DNA of 50,861 bases from an uncultured Bacteroidota bacterium. Its GTDB lineage: Bacteria > Bacteroidota > Bacteroidia > Chitinophagales > LD1. Shown in pieces: positions 1 to 7,442 of the stretch. Where the stretch lies: contig CAIXGR010000089.1 of NCBI GenBank assembly GCA_903919075.1, positions 1 through 50,861 on the forward strand, in the 5' to 3' direction. Numbering within the stretch: the stretch's first letter is position 1; every line of letters starts with the position of its first letter. Both the position numbers and the translations under genes were made by a program. The notes under the pieces were generated by a model. That model had not been told where the DNA came from. It did no database searches and was given only the letters and a program-made list of their open reading frames with translations.

Positions 1-1049
1 ACGTTTTAACAATAACAATTATTCTGCTTTTGCTTTGCCAGTTTAGTAATATAAGTGCACAGGGCATTAGCATTGGTACAGCAGGTAATTTACCCGATGC
101 TTCGGCGGCCCTGGATATACAGGACACAGCTAAAGGCTTATTAGTGCCTCGTATGACAAGGGCAGCTAGGGCAGCTATTGCCAATCCGGCAACTGGTTTA
201 ATTGTATATCAAACCGACAGTACCACAGGCTTTTGGTACAATGCAGGAACGCCCTGGGCAATTAATTGGGTACAATTGGTGCCTAATCCGGCAAATAGTG
301 TATTGAATATGACTAGCAATATCATTACTAACCTGCCTCCACCAATTGCCGGGTCTGATGCTGTAAATAAAAATTACGTTGATAATGCCGTTTCAGCAGC
401 CGGTGCGCCCAGTTGGACCAACTTTCAGGAGTTTATATTAAGCAGTGGTTCATTTACATTTACAGTACCTGCCAACATTGCACTTGTTAAAGTGCAGGTA
501 TGTGGTGGCGGCGGCGGCGGTGGCGGCAATAGCGGCGGCGGCGGCGGCGGTGGTGGGTATGCCGAAGGTATTTACCCGGTAACTCCTAATGCAGTTTACA
601 ATATAACAATTGGCGCAGGTGGCACAGCGGGTCCGGCATCAGGTGGCCCGGGTGGCAATGGAGGAACAAGCAGCTTTGACGCACTTATTTCTGCAACCGG
701 TGGAACGGGTGGAGGGAATAATACTATTGGTGGACAGGGAGGTTGGGGTGTTGGAGGCTCAACAAATACTACATTGGGAAGCGGTGGGAACCCAGGCCTT
801 AGTTATTATAGTTACGGGTTTAATCCTGGTCAACCAGGAACTAACGGTGGGGGAAGTGGCGGTACATCAATAGGTGGCGGGAATCAAAGTGCCGGCGGTG
901 GTGGAGGGGGTATAGGTGGTGGTAATGGTGGAAACGGAAACACTGTTGGAAACGACGCTATCGCCAATTCAGGTGCTGGCGGCGGCGGCGGCGGACTAAA
1001 CTATGTTGGAGGTAATGGTGCTTCGGGACGAGTAGTTGTTTACTGGTAA
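1..1049 (+). CDS. Glycine-rich secreted protein, tail-fibre-like (5' truncated)
   Basis: The reading frame is open to the left edge of the window, and the first visible residues (VLTITIILLLLCQ) are the hydrophobic core of a signal peptide, so the true start lies outside. After the signal comes an N-terminal domain (SAALDI, KGLLVPRMT, GLIVYQTD) common in secreted Bacteroidota proteins. A phage-tail-fibre-like stretch follows (SDAVNKNYVDNAV, about 115-125 residues in). The last ~190 residues are a glycine-rich domain with long Gly runs, starting at FTFTVPANIALVKVQVCGG. It ends in RVVVYW, resembling the end of the paralog at 1746-3446 (MVVVTY). I infer an extracellular, probably structural protein. 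No catalytic motif is seen and the exact function is unknown. Confidence 0.75.
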   Translation, partial: VLTITIILLLLCQFSNISAQGISIGTAGNLPDASAALDIQDTAKGLLVPRMTRAARAAIANPATGLIVYQTDSTTGFWYNAGTPWAINWVQLVPNPANSVLNMTSNIITNLPPPIAGSDAVNKNYVDNAVSAAGAPSWTNFQEFILSSGSFTFTVPANIALVKVQVCGGGGGGGGNSGGGGGGGGYAEGIYPVTPNAVYNITIGAGGTAGPASGGPGGNGGTSSFDALISATGGTGGGNNTIGGQGGWGVGGSTNTTLGSGGNPGLSYYSYGFNPGQPGTNGGGSGGTSIGGGNQSAGGGGGGIGGGNGGNGNTVGNDAIANSGAGGGGGGLNYVGGNGASGRVVVYW

Positions 1050-1085
1050 TACTTGGCAATTTTAATGGATAGGCAGCTATAAATA

Positions 1086-1646
1086 ATGAATTTAGTTACC
1101 AGAAAATACATGTTCTATAAGTTACTGTTTTTTATATACATTTTTTTCTGTTGCAAAAGCATAACAGCACAAACGGCAATTGATTCTTCGTGCATTACTA
1201 GCACTGAAATAAAGCAAGTACGAGGTACTTCGCTAACGGGTATTGTTAGTGATGGAAGTAGTATAATTCTAGCTTACGGATTTTACAATTGCAATCCTGT
1301 CTTATTGAATGATATTGTGGCTTACAAGTACGGGGGCTCAAAAATTCCTTTAATTAAAATAGTGAAGGCATTACCGGGTGATACGTTTCACGTTTTACTG
1401 AAAGATAATTATTATTATATAGAAGTAAATAAAAAAACGGTAACTTATAGCGATGGCGCTATATACAAGCTGCCACAAAAGGAATATGCCATGTTAAAAA
1501 TGTATGAAGATTCGTACCACAGTGTTATTCCCCCAAGCGCGTATCTTATACTTGGCAACCGTACCGGTACTACCGATAGCGGAAGGTTTGGACTGATAAG
1601 CAAGAACGATATTTTGGGCAAAGCGTTAAAGGTTATATCTAGGTAG
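1086..1646 (+). CDS. S26 signal-peptidase-like serine/lysine protease
   Basis: 186 residues with an N-terminal hydrophobic segment (residues 10-27) ending in TAQ. The rest matches the ordered boxes of type I signal peptidases and TraF-like S26 peptidases. RGTSLTG aligns with the GxSMxP box, with Ser49 as candidate nucleophile. PLIKIVKALPGD aligns with IKRVVGLPGD, with Lys91 as candidate general base. LGNRTGTTDSGRFG aligns with the GDNRxxSxDSR box. The protein has no second membrane segment and is shorter than typical housekeeping LepB, so I read it as an accessory periplasm-facing S26 enzyme. It lies 36 nt after one glycine-rich secreted protein gene and 99 nt before its paralog, which suggests but does not prove that it processes them. 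The family call is by motif reading only. Confidence 0.62.
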   Translation: MNLVTRKYMFYKLLFFIYIFFCCKSITAQTAIDSSCITSTEIKQVRGTSLTGIVSDGSSIILAYGFYNCNPVLLNDIVAYKYGGSKIPLIKIVKALPGDTFHVLLKDNYYYIEVNKKTVTYSDGAIYKLPQKEYAMLKMYEDSYHSVIPPSAYLILGNRTGTTDSGRFGLISKNDILGKALKVISR

Positions 1647-1711
1647 TTGGGATGGAGTTATAGCATCATTTCTTAACGGTGCCAAAGTGCACTGTTTCTG
1701 AACAAATTTTA

Positions 1712-1719
1712 TATATTTG
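1712..1719 (+). promoter_or_regulatory. Bacteroidota -7 promoter box TATATTTG
   Basis: Exact match to the TAnnTTTG consensus of Bacteroidota housekeeping promoters, 26 nt before the ATG at 1746. No good -33 TTTG is visible at the usual spacing. It suggests that the downstream glycine-rich gene can be transcribed on its own. Confidence 0.45.
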
Positions 1720-1745
1720 AATACCACACACTAACTTATCAGGCA

Positions 1746-3446
1746 ATGAAAAAATTATACTTCTTATCAGTTGTATTTATTCTATTTTTTGTTTCTGAAA
1801 ACCCGAAGCTAAGTGCACAAGGTATTGCCATTAATACTAGTGGACTGTCGCCTGATAGCTCAGCCGCACTGGATATAAACTTTACCAATAAGGGATTTTT
1901 GCTTCCAAGAATGACACAAACGCAACGTAACAATATTGCTAACCCCGCGGTGGGGTTGCAAATTTATAATACCACAACCGGTTGCCTTAACATATGGACC
2001 GGCAGCTTTTGGAAAAAATCGTGTTTTGATTGCGATTTCACGGTTGCTGCAACTAATAATAGCCCGGTATGTGCAGGCAGCACGCTTAATTTAATGGCAT
2101 CAAGCGTGCAAGGTGCAAGTTATAGTTGGGCAGGGCCAAATGGCTTTTCTTCTACTGTACAAAATCCTGTTCTCCCCAGCGTTTCCACAGCTGCCAATGG
2201 TGTGTACGCGCTTACTGTTAGTGCCGGTGGTTGTATTTCGAATCCGGTGCTTACTTTTACTACGGTTTCGGTAGTTCCGGTAATACCTTCTAACAATAGT
2301 ATTAGCGGGAAAACAACGGCTTGTTCATCAACCGGTGGTTTTGTATACTCTGTTGCGCCGGTAGCCGATGCTACGAGCTATAACTGGACGGTTCCCAGCG
2401 GGGCTACCATTACCGCAGGGCAGGGTACTGATAGTATTACAGTTACTTTTGGAAGTTCATCGGGTACAATCAGTGTCAATGCGTCTAACAATTGCGGATC
2501 CAGTCCGACAATAAGCATTAGTGTTAATTTAGTTTTACCACCGGCAGCAAGTTTTACCTCCTCACCGTCGGAAGCTTTTACTAATAGCAATATTTATTTT
2601 ACCCCACTGCCAATCAGCGCAGGCGATACTTTTAGCTGGTCGTTTCAAAATGGTAACCCATCCAGCGATACGGGTCAATACCCCTTTGCAAGTTGGAGTT
2701 CGCCAGGTACTTATAATGTAACAGTAGTTGGCACAAGCTCGGTTTGTACAACTACAGCTACCGGTAGTATTACGATAACTAATGCACTACCGGCACACGG
2801 TACTGATACTTTTAATTTTTATAATGGCCCGCAAACCTTTACAGTGCCTAATGGCATTAGCACAGTAACACTCCAATGCTGGGGCTCGCAGGGCGCTACG
2901 GCTACCGGCGGGTTAGGTGGATATGCGACCGGAAACCTGAGTGTTGGTTCTGGACAGCAACTTTACGTTTATGTAGGCGGGCAGGATGGCACCAATGGCG
3001 GCGGTATTGGAAACAGTGGCAATGGCGGTGGGGCTTCTGATGTTCGCGTTGGAGGAACGGGTTATGCCAACAGAATTATTGTGGGGGGCGGAGGTGGAGG
3101 CGGCTATGGCGGATTTTCCGGAGGCTATGGGGGTGGAACAGTCGGCGGTCCCTCTGGTTATTCAAATAACAATAATGCTGCACAAGGCGGCACACAAATT
3201 GGAGGCGGCAATTGGGGCGGCGGTTTTGGTACCGGTGGCTTGTCGGATTATAATGGTGGCGGCGGATACGCGGGTAGCGGTGGCGGTGGCGGATGGTATG
3301 GCGGTGGCTCTAACAATACAGCGCAGGGTGCACCGGTTACTAATTCGGCCGGTGGTGGTGGTTCGGGGTATATAGGAGGGGTAACCGGTGCATCTATGCA
3401 ATCGGGTGTTCAAACCGGTAACGGAATGGTGGTGGTTACATATTAA
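1746..3446 (+). CDS. Secreted PKD-like/glycine-rich domain protein
   Basis: 566 residues with a signal peptide ending at about residue 25 (LSAQ). Residues ~26-95 repeat the N-terminal domain of the gene at 1-1049 (SAALDI, KGFLLPRMT, IANPAVGLQIYNT). Residues ~97-345 look like successive Ig/PKD-like modules (PVCAGSTLNLMAS, NSPV, then FSWSFQNGNPSSDTGQYPF and SSPGTYNVTV). The C-terminal ~210 residues form a glycine-rich domain. It opens with FTVPNGISTVTLQCWGSQGA and contains GGASDVRVGG and IIVGGGGGGG, reminiscent of the glycine-rich domain family that includes ALK/LTK receptors. No T9SS tail is visible. I infer a surface or matrix protein, paralogous to the first gene in the window. Confidence 0.78.
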   Translation: MKKLYFLSVVFILFFVSENPKLSAQGIAINTSGLSPDSSAALDINFTNKGFLLPRMTQTQRNNIANPAVGLQIYNTTTGCLNIWTGSFWKKSCFDCDFTVAATNNSPVCAGSTLNLMASSVQGASYSWAGPNGFSSTVQNPVLPSVSTAANGVYALTVSAGGCISNPVLTFTTVSVVPVIPSNNSISGKTTACSSTGGFVYSVAPVADATSYNWTVPSGATITAGQGTDSITVTFGSSSGTISVNASNNCGSSPTISISVNLVLPPAASFTSSPSEAFTNSNIYFTPLPISAGDTFSWSFQNGNPSSDTGQYPFASWSSPGTYNVTVVGTSSVCTTTATGSITITNALPAHGTDTFNFYNGPQTFTVPNGISTVTLQCWGSQGATATGGLGGYATGNLSVGSGQQLYVYVGGQDGTNGGGIGNSGNGGGASDVRVGGTGYANRIIVGGGGGGGYGGFSGGYGGGTVGGPSGYSNNNNAAQGGTQIGGGNWGGGFGTGGLSDYNGGGGYAGSGGGGGWYGGGSNNTAQGAPVTNSAGGGGSGYIGGVTGASMQSGVQTGNGMVVVTY

Positions 3447-4394: not shown

Positions 4395-5579
4395 TCATGA
4401 GTTTACTCCAACTGTTCTGAAAATGCTGAACGACCTTACCGCTAATAAAATGATAATTGGTGCAAAGGCAAAGTTCAGCGGTTGTGGGTTCCATCTCCAA
4501 CCTATAAGCAAAATGAGCATTAAAACACAATTAGCTAGAAAATAATACCGCAGCCAATCAGGCTTTTTCTTTTTTAGTAAAAGAAAGGCTACAAAAAAAT
4601 GAATAGGCGATAACCAAAGCATATTCAAGTTTTCGGGCACAGAATAATGTGTAGTAAATAGCCACAACGAAACGAATAACAAGCCCAATAGCCCGGCTAT
4701 TAGAAATAGTATAAAGTCGAAAAAGTAATAATGTGTTTTTCTCAAGCTTTCGAAAAACATGAGTAGAAATCCGGTCAGCATTAAAAATATAGTAACATGG
4801 ATGGGGCGGATGGGCGTTTTAATTTCTGCCGATGGAAAATCTAATAGTGTTTGATTTTTTGAAACAAAAGGCTGCCCATCAACAGTAGCGCAGGCAAACA
4901 TTTTTGCGAGGTAATCTGGCAGAAATGTTTGGTCGCGCGGTTTTGCAGGTACTTCGCAGGGCAGGCCTAATGCCAGGTCGAACCCAAAATCGACCCATGG
5001 ACGGTTATGCACATATAGCCTAAGCATATCATGCATGGTTTTATGTTGTTCAAACCCACAGCTATCGGTTCGGTATTTAATTCTACCACCAAGTGCTTTT
5101 TCAAAAATATCGCGTGGGCGTGTTGCGCAGTTATCCCAAAAAAAATCGTATTGATAGTCTCTGTTTTCGGGTAATGTATTGATGTAAAGCGCGGCAAATA
5201 TTTTCTTTTTGTCTTCAACACTTAAGTTTAGTTGTTGCTCTGTTACACTTCTTTTTTCGTAAATGTATTCACTCATAAAGTCATTGAAGGTTTCGGAAGT
5301 AACGCTATATATCATTCTGCCCTTTACAAAATTGTAGTAAAACCCCGGTTGTGAATCATCGAATGTTCCGTAATTAAAAACCACATCCCAGCCTTCTTTA
5401 TAATCGGTAACTCTTATACCGTTATGCCCAAATGCTGAATATAATTCCTCGCCGGGTGAACAGGTAAGCAAGGAAATACGCGCCGAGTCGGAAAGCTGAA
5501 TAGAGTAAACTGATTGAAAGAGTATAAAACAAAAAAGGAAGGATAAAAATTTGTGAAAGAACCTGTTTGATTTTATCAT
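4395..5579 (-). CDS. DUF4105 (Lnb N-terminal periplasmic) membrane protein
   Basis: 394 residues: a signal peptide (1-26, SVYS), a periplasmic DUF4105 domain (~30-250), then about five membrane helices from residue ~258 to the C-terminus. Family landmarks are LLTCSPGEELYSAFGHNGIRV (residues 37-57), YDFFWDNCATRPRD (144-157) and the GTFD region between them. His52 and Cys151 sit in contexts that resemble NlpC/P60-like cysteine peptidase sites; that is my inference, and the biochemical role of the family is not settled. It lies 14 nt downstream of the YqgE/AlgH gene on the same strand, so the two are probably co-transcribed. Confidence 0.8.
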   Translation of the reverse strand: MIKSNRFFHKFLSFLFCFILFQSVYSIQLSDSARISLLTCSPGEELYSAFGHNGIRVTDYKEGWDVVFNYGTFDDSQPGFYYNFVKGRMIYSVTSETFNDFMSEYIYEKRSVTEQQLNLSVEDKKKIFAALYINTLPENRDYQYDFFWDNCATRPRDIFEKALGGRIKYRTDSCGFEQHKTMHDMLRLYVHNRPWVDFGFDLALGLPCEVPAKPRDQTFLPDYLAKMFACATVDGQPFVSKNQTLLDFPSAEIKTPIRPIHVTIFLMLTGFLLMFFESLRKTHYYFFDFILFLIAGLLGLLFVSLWLFTTHYSVPENLNMLWLSPIHFFVAFLLLKKKKPDWLRYYFLANCVLMLILLIGWRWNPQPLNFAFAPIIILLAVRSFSIFRTVGVNS

Positions 5580-5593
5580 CCTGTTCGGGTAGT

Positions 5594-6190
5594 TTAATTA
5601 AGTATTGGATTTTCGGGATAGCCGGACATAGTATCGTAAAGACCACCTAATTCTTTCATTACATCTTTCCAAAGTGTATCAGCTGGAATTTCGAAAATAT
5701 GTTTGTAGTTCGCCTGTGCAATAATCCACGAGTTATCTTTTAATTCCTGCCCCAACTGTTCGGCAGACCAACCGGAATAGCCCAAATAAAAGCGAATATC
5801 ATGCGGCGTTATTTTGCCATTTTTTATCATTGCTTTTACCTGATCAAAGTCGCCGCCCCAATAAAGGCCATCGGCTAATTTTATACTTCCATCAATTAGA
5901 TCGCCCAGTGAGTGCAAAAATTGCAGTGTATCGGTACCCACAGGCCCCCCCAGGAAAACCCTTCCTTTAAAAGAGGGGAAATCTTCTATTACATCCGTTA
6001 ATCTTAAATTAACGGGTTTATTAAGCATTAGGCCAATAGTGCCGTTTGCTATGCTGTGTTCGCAGACCAAAACAACTGTACGCCTAAAGTTTTCATCTTC
6101 CATAAAAGGTTCTGAAAGAAGTAGCTGGCCGGCTTTAACCACCTTATCTTTTTCGAACTCGTAACTCCAAATTTTATCGTCATCAACCAT
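5594..6190 (-). CDS. yqgE: YqgE/AlgH family protein
   Basis: 198 residues, close to the usual size of the family. The signatures are GQLLLSEPFMEDENFRRTVV (residues ~21-40), GTIGLMLNKPVN, VFLGGPVGTDTLQFLH and YLGYSGWSAEQLGQEL, all characteristic of the YqgE/AlgH fold (Pfam DUF179). These proteins are cytoplasmic and widely conserved, and their molecular function is not established; AlgH was first linked to alginate regulation in Pseudomonas. It is the first gene of a probable two-gene unit with the DUF4105 protein. Confidence 0.92.
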   Translation of the reverse strand: MVDDDKIWSYEFEKDKVVKAGQLLLSEPFMEDENFRRTVVLVCEHSIANGTIGLMLNKPVNLRLTDVIEDFPSFKGRVFLGGPVGTDTLQFLHSLGDLIDGSIKLADGLYWGGDFDQVKAMIKNGKITPHDIRFYLGYSGWSAEQLGQELKDNSWIIAQANYKHIFEIPADTLWKDVMKELGGLYDTMSGYPENPILN

Positions 6191-6404
6191 AATCCTAAAC
6201 TCAATTATAAGCGATATTAAGCAAAATCTTTACACTCGAACACAGCTTTAACCTGATTTTATAAACGCTTTTTCCTGACAAAAAATTTCAATCAACCATC
6301 ATTTGAGCCATATCCTGAGCATTTTAAACCATTTCTAACATTTACGAAGCAGGGCTATGATTGGTTTACGCTTAATTTTTACGAAATTTACCAGCGCTAA
6401 ATTA

Positions 6405-7442
6405 ATGTACATGCCTTTAAAGCGATTTGTTTTATTTTTTGTTTGCATTGCTGCATTTGCGATTTCGTATGCTCAGTCATCTACTGACAGCATCTATTTC
6501 AAATTTACAAGATTGAGTGATACTGTGGACCAGATGGCAGGAATTATTCCGGTAGTAGCAGAAATTTATAACCCAACAGCCGATTCATTTACATTTATAA
6601 TTTATGCCAATCAAAGTGCGTCAACTGCGATTCAGGGAAACGGGAATGATTATATATATGTAAACAAGGAGTTTAAAAACGGGCCAGGTATAACCCGCGA
6701 TACCGTTTATATAAACGTATTGCAAAACCAGCTTATTTCTGCAACTAAAAAGGTGGTTATGGGATTTATTAATCTTCCAGCTAATGCGGAAATAATACCC
6801 GATTCGACGTACACATTATATATTACTAATAATAATGTTTTAATGGTTTCTTTTTTGGGAGCGGCTTACAGCTTTTCTAAGGATACTCCATTAGTTGAGG
6901 TAAAAGTTGTGCTATCAACATACTGGCCGCAACTGGTAACTGCCAATGTAACATTGGCACCGGGGAGTGCTGTTTATGGAACAGATTATCTTTTTAATGA
7001 TACCACAGTGGTTTTCCCGCCTTATAGCAGCGATACGCAGGGGGTATGGGTTACAATAATTAATAATAATATTTACGAGTCCAATAAGCAGATTAACTTT
7101 AACCTTACTAATCCAACTGGCGGCGCAATTCTCGGTACTTCAGGCTTTACACTAACTATTATTAATAACGATTCTATTGGAACTGCAGTTCCGTTGATTG
7201 ATTTTGAGAATGGCCTAAAGGTTTTCCCTAACCCAGCTTCAAATCAATTGAATGTTCAATCAGAAAAAATATTGAATAGGGTTGAAATACGAGATATGCT
7301 TGGAAATGTAGCAGTAAGCACCGGTAACCTTATGGCCGGAAAAAATAACGTAAATATTTCGATGCTGCCTTCAGGAATGTATTTTATCAGCATCCTTTCG
7401 GAAGATAAAATTTACAGTAGGCCATTTATAAAAAGTGAATAG
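6405..7442 (+). CDS. Secreted Calx-beta protein with T9SS sorting domain
   Basis: The reading frame extends upstream to 6357, but the ATG at 6405 (or 6411) directly precedes a good signal peptide, MPLKRFVLFFVCIAAFAISYAQ, so I place the start there (345 residues). The middle contains Calx-beta-like sequence (VYGTDYLFNDTTVVFPP ... NLTNPTGGAILGTSGFTLTIINND), a beta-sandwich seen in adhesins. The last ~75 residues form a type A T9SS C-terminal domain (LKVFPNPASNQLNVQS, EIRDMLGNVA, LPSGMYFISI, PFIKSE). The product is presumably exported through PorU-type machinery and anchored or released outside. Dispersed repeat family 2 begins 8 nt after its stop codon. Confidence 0.82.
   Translation: MYMPLKRFVLFFVCIAAFAISYAQSSTDSIYFKFTRLSDTVDQMAGIIPVVAEIYNPTADSFTFIIYANQSASTAIQGNGNDYIYVNKEFKNGPGITRDTVYINVLQNQLISATKKVVMGFINLPANAEIIPDSTYTLYITNNNVLMVSFLGAAYSFSKDTPLVEVKVVLSTYWPQLVTANVTLAPGSAVYGTDYLFNDTTVVFPPYSSDTQGVWVTIINNNIYESNKQINFNLTNPTGGAILGTSGFTLTIINNDSIGTAVPLIDFENGLKVFPNPASNQLNVQSEKILNRVEIRDMLGNVAVSTGNLMAGKNNVNISMLPSGMYFISILSEDKIYSRPFIKSE

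What the first reader, a model, noticed from the sequence alone, without database searches (positions are those of the whole stretch)
1..3446. S26 protease between two glycine-rich secreted paralogs: a possible dedicated processing cassette
The flanking genes share their N-terminal domain and end in glycine-rich, beta-type domains. The protein between them has all three S26 boxes: Ser49 in RGTSLTG, Lys91 in PLIKIVKALPGD and GNRTGTTDSGRFG. It is smaller than a housekeeping signal peptidase and has a single N-terminal hydrophobic segment. A dedicated S26 enzyme acting on matrix-type proteins would be new; this is inference from order and motifs.
Basis: partly seen in the sequence, partly recalled or inferred. 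Interest (0 to 1): 0.62.

Follow-up and report, generated by a model that had tools for sequence, protein, structure and literature searches.

The report
Signal-peptidase-like enzyme paired with fibre-like proteins
A small exported relative of the enzyme that clips signal peptides sits beside the gene for a secreted protein with a phage-tail-fibre-like stalk; the pairing recurs in distant relatives, so it is probably a dedicated trimming enzyme for that protein, though no cleavage has been shown.

Summary
The 186-residue protein (1086-1646) is a real S26 peptidase (Pfam 44.6 bits, cut-off 22.9). Ser49 and Lys91 are invariant in all 8 sequences compared.

The interpretation needs correcting. 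The partner is not the glycine-rich domain and not the downstream gene, which carries one of 48 copies of a common N-terminal domain in this genome. The partner is the upstream gene (1-1049), through a segment that resembles phage tail fibres (ITNL..DA.NK.YVD).

In a genome of another family (G040) the S26 gene again directly follows the only N-domain protein with this segment, there ending in a lectin-like Lcl_C-type domain. In two genomes of a third family it lies about 1 kb from arrays of such proteins. In a 16-genome comparison, all 8 S26 carriers and none of 8 hand-picked non-carriers have full-length segment proteins. In four carriers the two are unlinked.

A small-residue motif, V[SA][AG][AS]G, follows the segment in 52 of 53 partner ORFs and in 0 of 60 phage sequences. 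It is a plausible cleavage site. Dedicated S26 enzymes for matrix proteins are already known (SipW/TasA). No cleavage is shown.

The parts
1..1049 (+). Gene 1, 5' end cut by the contig end: secreted protein with N-terminal domain, tail-fibre-like segment and Gly_rich_2 C-terminus; proposed substrate
   Evidence: ORF; Gly_rich_2 65.9 bits, cut-off 24.3; phrog_863 'tail fiber assembly' E 2.8e-35 over residues 88-348
60..239 (+). N-terminal domain ('SAALD..KGLLVPRMT') of gene 1, with 48 matches in this genome
324..383 (+). Tail-fibre-like segment ITNL..DAVNKNYVD of gene 1
   Evidence: present in 2 of 69 N-domain ORFs of G000 and G040, both next to S26; common in phage tail-fibre genes
390..404 (+). 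Candidate cleavage site VSAAG (inferred)
   Evidence: V[SA][AG][AS]G in 52 of 53 module ORFs, 0 of 60 phage followers; motif formulated after the fact
1086..1646 (+). S26 peptidase, 186 aa, Ser49 (1230-1232), Lys91 (1356-1358), Cys36 and Cys69
1086..1172 (+). N-terminal hydrophobic segment (residues 11-23) followed by SITAQ, read as a cleavable signal peptide (inferred)
   Evidence: hydropathy; similar ..AQ ends in the paralogs; no signal-peptide predictor was available
1746..3446 (+). Gene 3: ordinary member of the N-domain family (PKD domains, ALK_LTK_GRD), without the segment
   Evidence: promoter-like TATATTTG at 1712, a motif not enriched in the window (48 found, 75 expected)

Best explanation
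The 1086-1646 gene encodes an active, exported Ser/Lys S26 peptidase dedicated to the class of surface protein made by the gene just upstream. Shown: S26 membership, conserved dyad, close same-strand arrangement in two families, and recurrence next to or in the same genome as proteins with the N-domain plus ITNL/NKxYVD module. Inferred: the enzyme is released by ordinary signal peptidase and folds in the periplasm or outside (the Cys36/Cys69 pair of four members would form a disulfide). It then cuts the partner after the NKxYVD helix at V[SA][AG]|[AS]G, separating the stalk module from the head, which is glycine-rich here and lectin-like (Lcl_C) elsewhere.
For: S26 profiles and PDB matches. 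Ser49, Lys91, Asp99, Asp164 and Ser165 invariant in 8 of 8 sequences that are 25-40% identical to the window protein. 36-bp gap in the window, 93 bp in G040. In G000 and G040 the only N-domain ORF with the segment, of 48 and 21, is the one directly upstream of S26. In G985 and G1005 S26 lies about 1 kb from arrays of module proteins. Full-length module in 8 of 8 carriers and 0 of 8 chosen non-carriers; in 318 order genomes the only full-length matches listed are G000 and G040. Motif after the segment in 52 of 53 ORFs, 0 of 60 phage followers, 0 in 13,201 other residues of the same proteins. A helix ends at the motif in the model (confidence 60-68 there).
Against: No cleavage shown. 4 of 8 carriers have S26 unlinked to the module genes, beside an S41 peptidase, and without the Cys pair. 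The carriers are three lineages at most, six of the eight being one genus. The module profile was built from carriers, the non-carriers were chosen by hand, and at most 14 candidates per genome were scored. The motif was defined after looking, and Gly/Ser-rich linkers are common. One array member of G796 lacks it. The looser small-residue rule fits 52 of 60 phage sequences. In G985 and G1005 the genes converge, so they are not one operon.
Confidence: 0.45

Rival explanations
1. The S26 enzyme serves the whole N-terminal-domain family (dozens of secreted proteins per genome), cutting near their common N-terminus, not only the tail-fibre-module proteins.
For: Matches to a module profile per genome: carriers 47, 19, 50, 54, 46, 25, 45, 28; non-carriers 17, 5, 6, 6, 6, 10, 15, 2. 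with another profile: 48 and 21 in G000 and G040, 0-14 in 14 others.
Against: Both profiles were built from carriers and the genomes were chosen. First-look counts put non-carriers G016 (37) and G243 (36) above G040 (25). Congeners have N-domain proteins without this S26. S26 sits beside the one module gene, not beside the others, in G000 and G040.
Confidence: 0.2
2. Linked by descent only: the two genes were inherited or transferred together in a few lineages and have no working relation.
For: Patchy distribution: 2 of 396 order genomes, and 7 strong hits (window genome and 6 of genus g343) among 395 class genomes. In 4 of 6 g343 genomes S26 is unlinked. Few independent lineages.
Against: S26 of G000 and G040 is only 41% identical, yet the order of the pair is kept while the other neighbours differ. 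The two still occur in the same genome where unlinked.
Confidence: 0.2
3. An extra general signal peptidase of housekeeping type, beside a family member by chance.
For: TIGR02227 (signal peptidase I) above its cut-off. With 48 N-domain matches in the genome, one such neighbour is not rare.
Against: A separate, longer PF10502 protein (552-aa frame on C77, 91 bits, taken to be LepB) is present. The two-row S26 profile found 2 of 198 genomes at E 1e-5 although 188 of 198 have PF10502. Its N-terminus looks cleavable rather than an anchor (inferred). The recurrence with the module is unexplained.
Confidence: 0.12

Closest known systems
Signal peptidase I, LepB/SpsB type (PF10502, TIGR02227; solved 4nv4, 4wvh)
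   Same: Family, Ser/Lys dyad, TIGR02227 cut-off passed by G000, G040 and G985 members
   Different: Small, short N-terminal segment read as cleavable, GDNR box degenerate, Gly in place of the Pro of SMxP (recalled consensus), a longer LepB-like protein present besides
SipW of Bacillus (ER-type signal peptidase for TasA)
   Same: Works like it: an S26 enzyme dedicated to one extracellular matrix-type protein (PMC10269814, passages)
   Different: SipW is ER-type (Ser-His by that paper); here Lys is kept in 8 of 8, so it is not a SipW
TraF, conjugative pilin peptidase (TIGR02771)
   Same: Second-best NCBIfam match (20.9 bits; 39.5 and 35.2 in G040 and G985); dedicated appendage enzyme (recalled)
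   Different: Far below the cut-off of 100.25; no conjugation genes among the neighbours examined with Pfam
Phage tail-fibre proteins with ITNL/NKxYVD segments
   Same: Same segment and, in gene 1, a related glycine-rich tip (phrog_863; IMG/VR; weak viral fold matches)
   Different: Signal peptide, Bacteroidota N-domain in front, chromosomal setting, V[SA][AG][AS]G after the segment (0 of 60 phage followers)

Membership tests
Peptidase family S26 | PF10502 over its curated cut-off | tested here: met
   44.6 bits against 22.9
Peptidase family S26 | Catalytic Ser and Lys | tested here: met
   Ser49 and Lys91 invariant in 8 of 8 and opposite those of 4nv4
Peptidase family S26 | Complete GDNR box | tested here: not met
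   Asp missing; the DS..FG part is kept in 8 of 8. The family is defined by the profile and dyad, so this does not exclude it
Housekeeping signal peptidase I (TIGR02227) | NCBIfam cut-off | tested here: met
   53.2 against 47; group B member of G862 39.3, below
Housekeeping signal peptidase I (TIGR02227) | Membrane anchor and general substrate range | not testable with these tools
   Only one short hydrophobic stretch, residues 11-23
SipW / ER-type S26 | His in place of Lys | tested here: not met
   Lys in 8 of 8
TraF (TIGR02771) | NCBIfam cut-off | tested here: not met
   20.9 against 100.25
Type IX secretion cargo (gene 1, gene 3) | T9SS C-terminal sorting domain (PF18962, TIGR04183) | tested here: not met
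   No match up to E 1 in genes 1 or 3, while the neighbour at 6357-7442 matches both
Dedicated S26 processing enzyme | Cleaves the partner protein | not testable with these tools
   Only genomic association and a candidate site

The most novel reading that the evidence does not exclude
A soluble exported S26 peptidase is the dedicated maturation enzyme of a chromosomal, tail-fibre-derived surface-display system in Bacteroidota. It cuts a conserved V[SA][AG]|[AS]G junction between a constant stalk module and a variable head. In some genomes tandem arrays of ten or more genes share one stalk and differ in their lectin-like heads, so one protease would mature a whole repertoire.
Probability: 0.3. 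Interest if true: 0.72.

Novelty: new variant of a known kind. Interest (0 to 1): 0.5.

Why it matters
Signal peptidases are normally general housekeeping enzymes. A small exported S26 enzyme tied to one architecture of surface protein, with a predicted internal cut, would extend the short list of dedicated S26 processing enzymes (SipW, TraF) to Bacteroidota surface proteins. It would also give a handle on a common but unexplained secreted domain (48 matches in this genome) and on stalk-plus-variable-head arrays. The predicted site makes it directly testable with two genes in a laboratory strain.

Tried and rejected
Glycine-rich domain as the link: rejected, since the partners in G040, G985 and the G796 array end in Lcl_C-type domains, and the G1005 array members end alike by sequence. 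Chance flanking only: one N-domain neighbour is unremarkable with 48 matches, but it does not explain the recurrence in G040 and G985/G1005.

Expansion of the N-domain family as a marker of S26: one search suggested it. First-look counts (G000 57, G016 37, G243 36, G040 25) seemed to weaken it. Full scoring of 16 chosen genomes brought it back. Kept as a rival because the model and the choice of genomes are biased.

Mobile element: no S26 relative in IMG/VR or phages; two weak Leptolyngbya plasmid hits for the window protein and 11 plasmid hits under 36% identity for the G985 one. Two scans of genome contigs found nothing. The family of G040 holds no other genome.

Structure: S26 with a two-row alignment failed (pLDDT 40.5). 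The stalk module gave pLDDT 77 with no PDB fold match at E 0.001 or better, no PDB sequence match up to E 1, and one viral fold match at E 7.7e-4.

A plain [VAISTL]x[AG] rule for the cleavage site was dropped as uninformative (52 of 60 phage sequences fit). Weak S26 hits in G990, G956, G968, G793 and G422 (E 6e-5 to 5e-4) were set aside as partial matches in longer frames (282-429 aa). One near-full-length match, G052:C5 (model positions 4-112), was read directly and lacks the segment in the 135 residues read; the scripts had not picked it up in the fetched stretch.

Full report
WHAT IS THERE. The window is the whole of a contig (G000:C89), so gene 1 loses its 5' end at base 1. Three co-directional ORFs lie at 3-1049, 1086-1646 and 1746-3446. 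The middle one is S26: Pfam PF10502 44.6 bits (cut-off 22.9), NCBIfam TIGR02227 53.2 (cut-off 47), and a match to solved signal peptidase 4nv4 that places Ser49 and Lys91 opposite its Ser and Lys. A profile of eight relatives matches 4nv4 at E 3.5e-14. Gene 1 ends in Gly_rich_2, gene 3 in PKD domains and ALK_LTK_GRD. Their N-termini are 51% identical over 72 aa.

BASE RATE. A profile of the shared N-terminal domain, built from three sequences of carriers, finds 48 matches in this genome, 21 in G040, and 0 to 14 in 14 other genomes. In this genome 40 of the 48 ORFs have a glycine-rich stretch; in G040 2 of 21. So gene 3 is an ordinary family member. Five congeners tested have 5 to 7 such matches, and none of 17 congeners has a match to this S26 at E 0.001.

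THE PAIR RECURS. The S26 subfamily is rare: 2 of 60 genomes of the first relatives sample, counting the window's own, and the same two of 396 genomes of the order. The other is G040, of another family, 41% identical. In G040 the S26 gene follows, on the same strand and after 93 bp (60 bp if a TTG start is used), a protein that is 39% identical to gene 1 over 128 aa. That protein ends in an Lcl_C-like domain (26.9 bits, below the Pfam cut-off of 34.9), not in a glycine-rich one. What the two partners share is the N-domain plus a segment, ITNL..P....DA.NK.YVD, known from phage tail fibres. I fetched the loci of the N-domain proteins of both genomes, giving 48 and 21 ORFs with the domain, as many as one search counted. 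Of these 69 ORFs, two have the segment: the two next to S26.

A THIRD LINEAGE. In 395 genomes of the class, a two-row S26 profile found, besides the window genome, six strong relatives (E 6.5e-22 to 4.1e-12), all in genus g343, and five weak partial ones. One search found one such S26 in each of the six held g343 genomes. In G985 and G1005 it lies about 1 kb from tandem arrays of proteins with the same module, facing them convergently. In the other four genomes it lies beside an S41 peptidase (Pfam checked in G862; the same neighbour by sequence in the others), without the Cys pair, and on other contigs than the module genes found. A phylum sample of 395 at a stricter limit (E 1e-12) found only the window genome. 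Samples overlap, so these counts should not be added.

CO-OCCURRENCE. A module profile from carrier genes, run on 16 chosen genomes, gave full-length matches in 8 of 8 carriers and 0 of 8 non-carriers. Among 318 order genomes, only G000 and G040 gave full-length matches in the listed rows, although at most 14 candidates per genome were scored there and the list was cut. The longest partial matches that I fetched or read lack the motif. Limits: the carriers are three lineages at most, the profile was built on carriers, the eight non-carriers were chosen by hand, and the class outside the order and g343 was not searched for the module.

CANDIDATE CUT. In 52 of 53 module ORFs (48 places, since two loci overlap) the motif V[SA][AG][AS]G lies in the ten residues after the NKxYVD segment. 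It is absent from the other 13,201 residues of those proteins. The exception is one array member in G796. In IMG/VR sequences with the same segment it follows in 0 of 60 distinct cases, while the looser rule [VAISTL]x[AG] fits 52 of 60. The motif was formulated after looking at the sequences, and many of the 53 are close copies. It fits the small-residue rule of signal peptidases at -3 and -1 (recalled). The model of the module puts a helix at its residues 105-114, which ends inside the motif; confidence is 60-68 in that part and 90-97 over residues 31-70.

MECHANISM. Shown: an S26 enzyme with an invariant Ser/Lys dyad; a close same-strand pair in two families; the module association. Inferred: export by a cleavable signal peptide (hydrophobic residues 11-23), a disulfide Cys36-Cys69 in the four group A members, and cleavage between stalk and head. 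Confidence in the full mechanism is 0.45; that the two genes are functionally linked at all, about 0.7.

RELATION TO KNOWN SYSTEMS. It is an S26 family member and passes the signal peptidase I cut-off, but a longer LepB-like protein is also present on C77. It is neither TraF by cut-off nor ER-type like SipW (Lys kept). Dedicated S26 enzymes for matrix proteins are known: the abstract and introduction passages of PMC10269814 describe SipW and TasA. Searches for print on this pairing listed nothing on it by title and abstract; they cover open-licence PMC papers only, and I read none of those listed.

Noticed in passing
L252:4357-15919, L253:2-8063, L257:4973-12509: Tandem arrays (15, 10 and 8 members compared) with a near-constant stalk and a variable Lcl_C-type head: mean DNA identity 0.84-0.89 in the module against 0.72-0.74 in the C-terminal part. 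This looks like diversification of heads on one stalk.
   Followed up: partly
window 6357-7442: Calx-beta protein with a T9SS sorting domain, so the genome encodes T9SS cargo, while genes 1 and 3 lack such a domain.
   Followed up: no
G000, 48 places: Large paralogous family of secreted proteins with the N-domain; 40 of 48 ORFs have a glycine-rich stretch. The domain has no Pfam match of its own in genes 1 and 3.
   Followed up: partly
L213:4000-6379, L214:2-1219, L215:6424-8802, L216:4328-6706: Group B S26 gene divergent from an S41 (CtpA-like) peptidase gene in four g343 genomes.
   Followed up: no
L211:7093-7668, L212:5563-6096: ORF between S26 and the module array, alike in both genomes, no Pfam match; may not be a gene.
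   Followed up: partly
window 4395-5579 and 5594-6190: Lnb-type protein and AlgH-like protein next to the cassette, on the other strand; ordinary neighbours.
   Followed up: no
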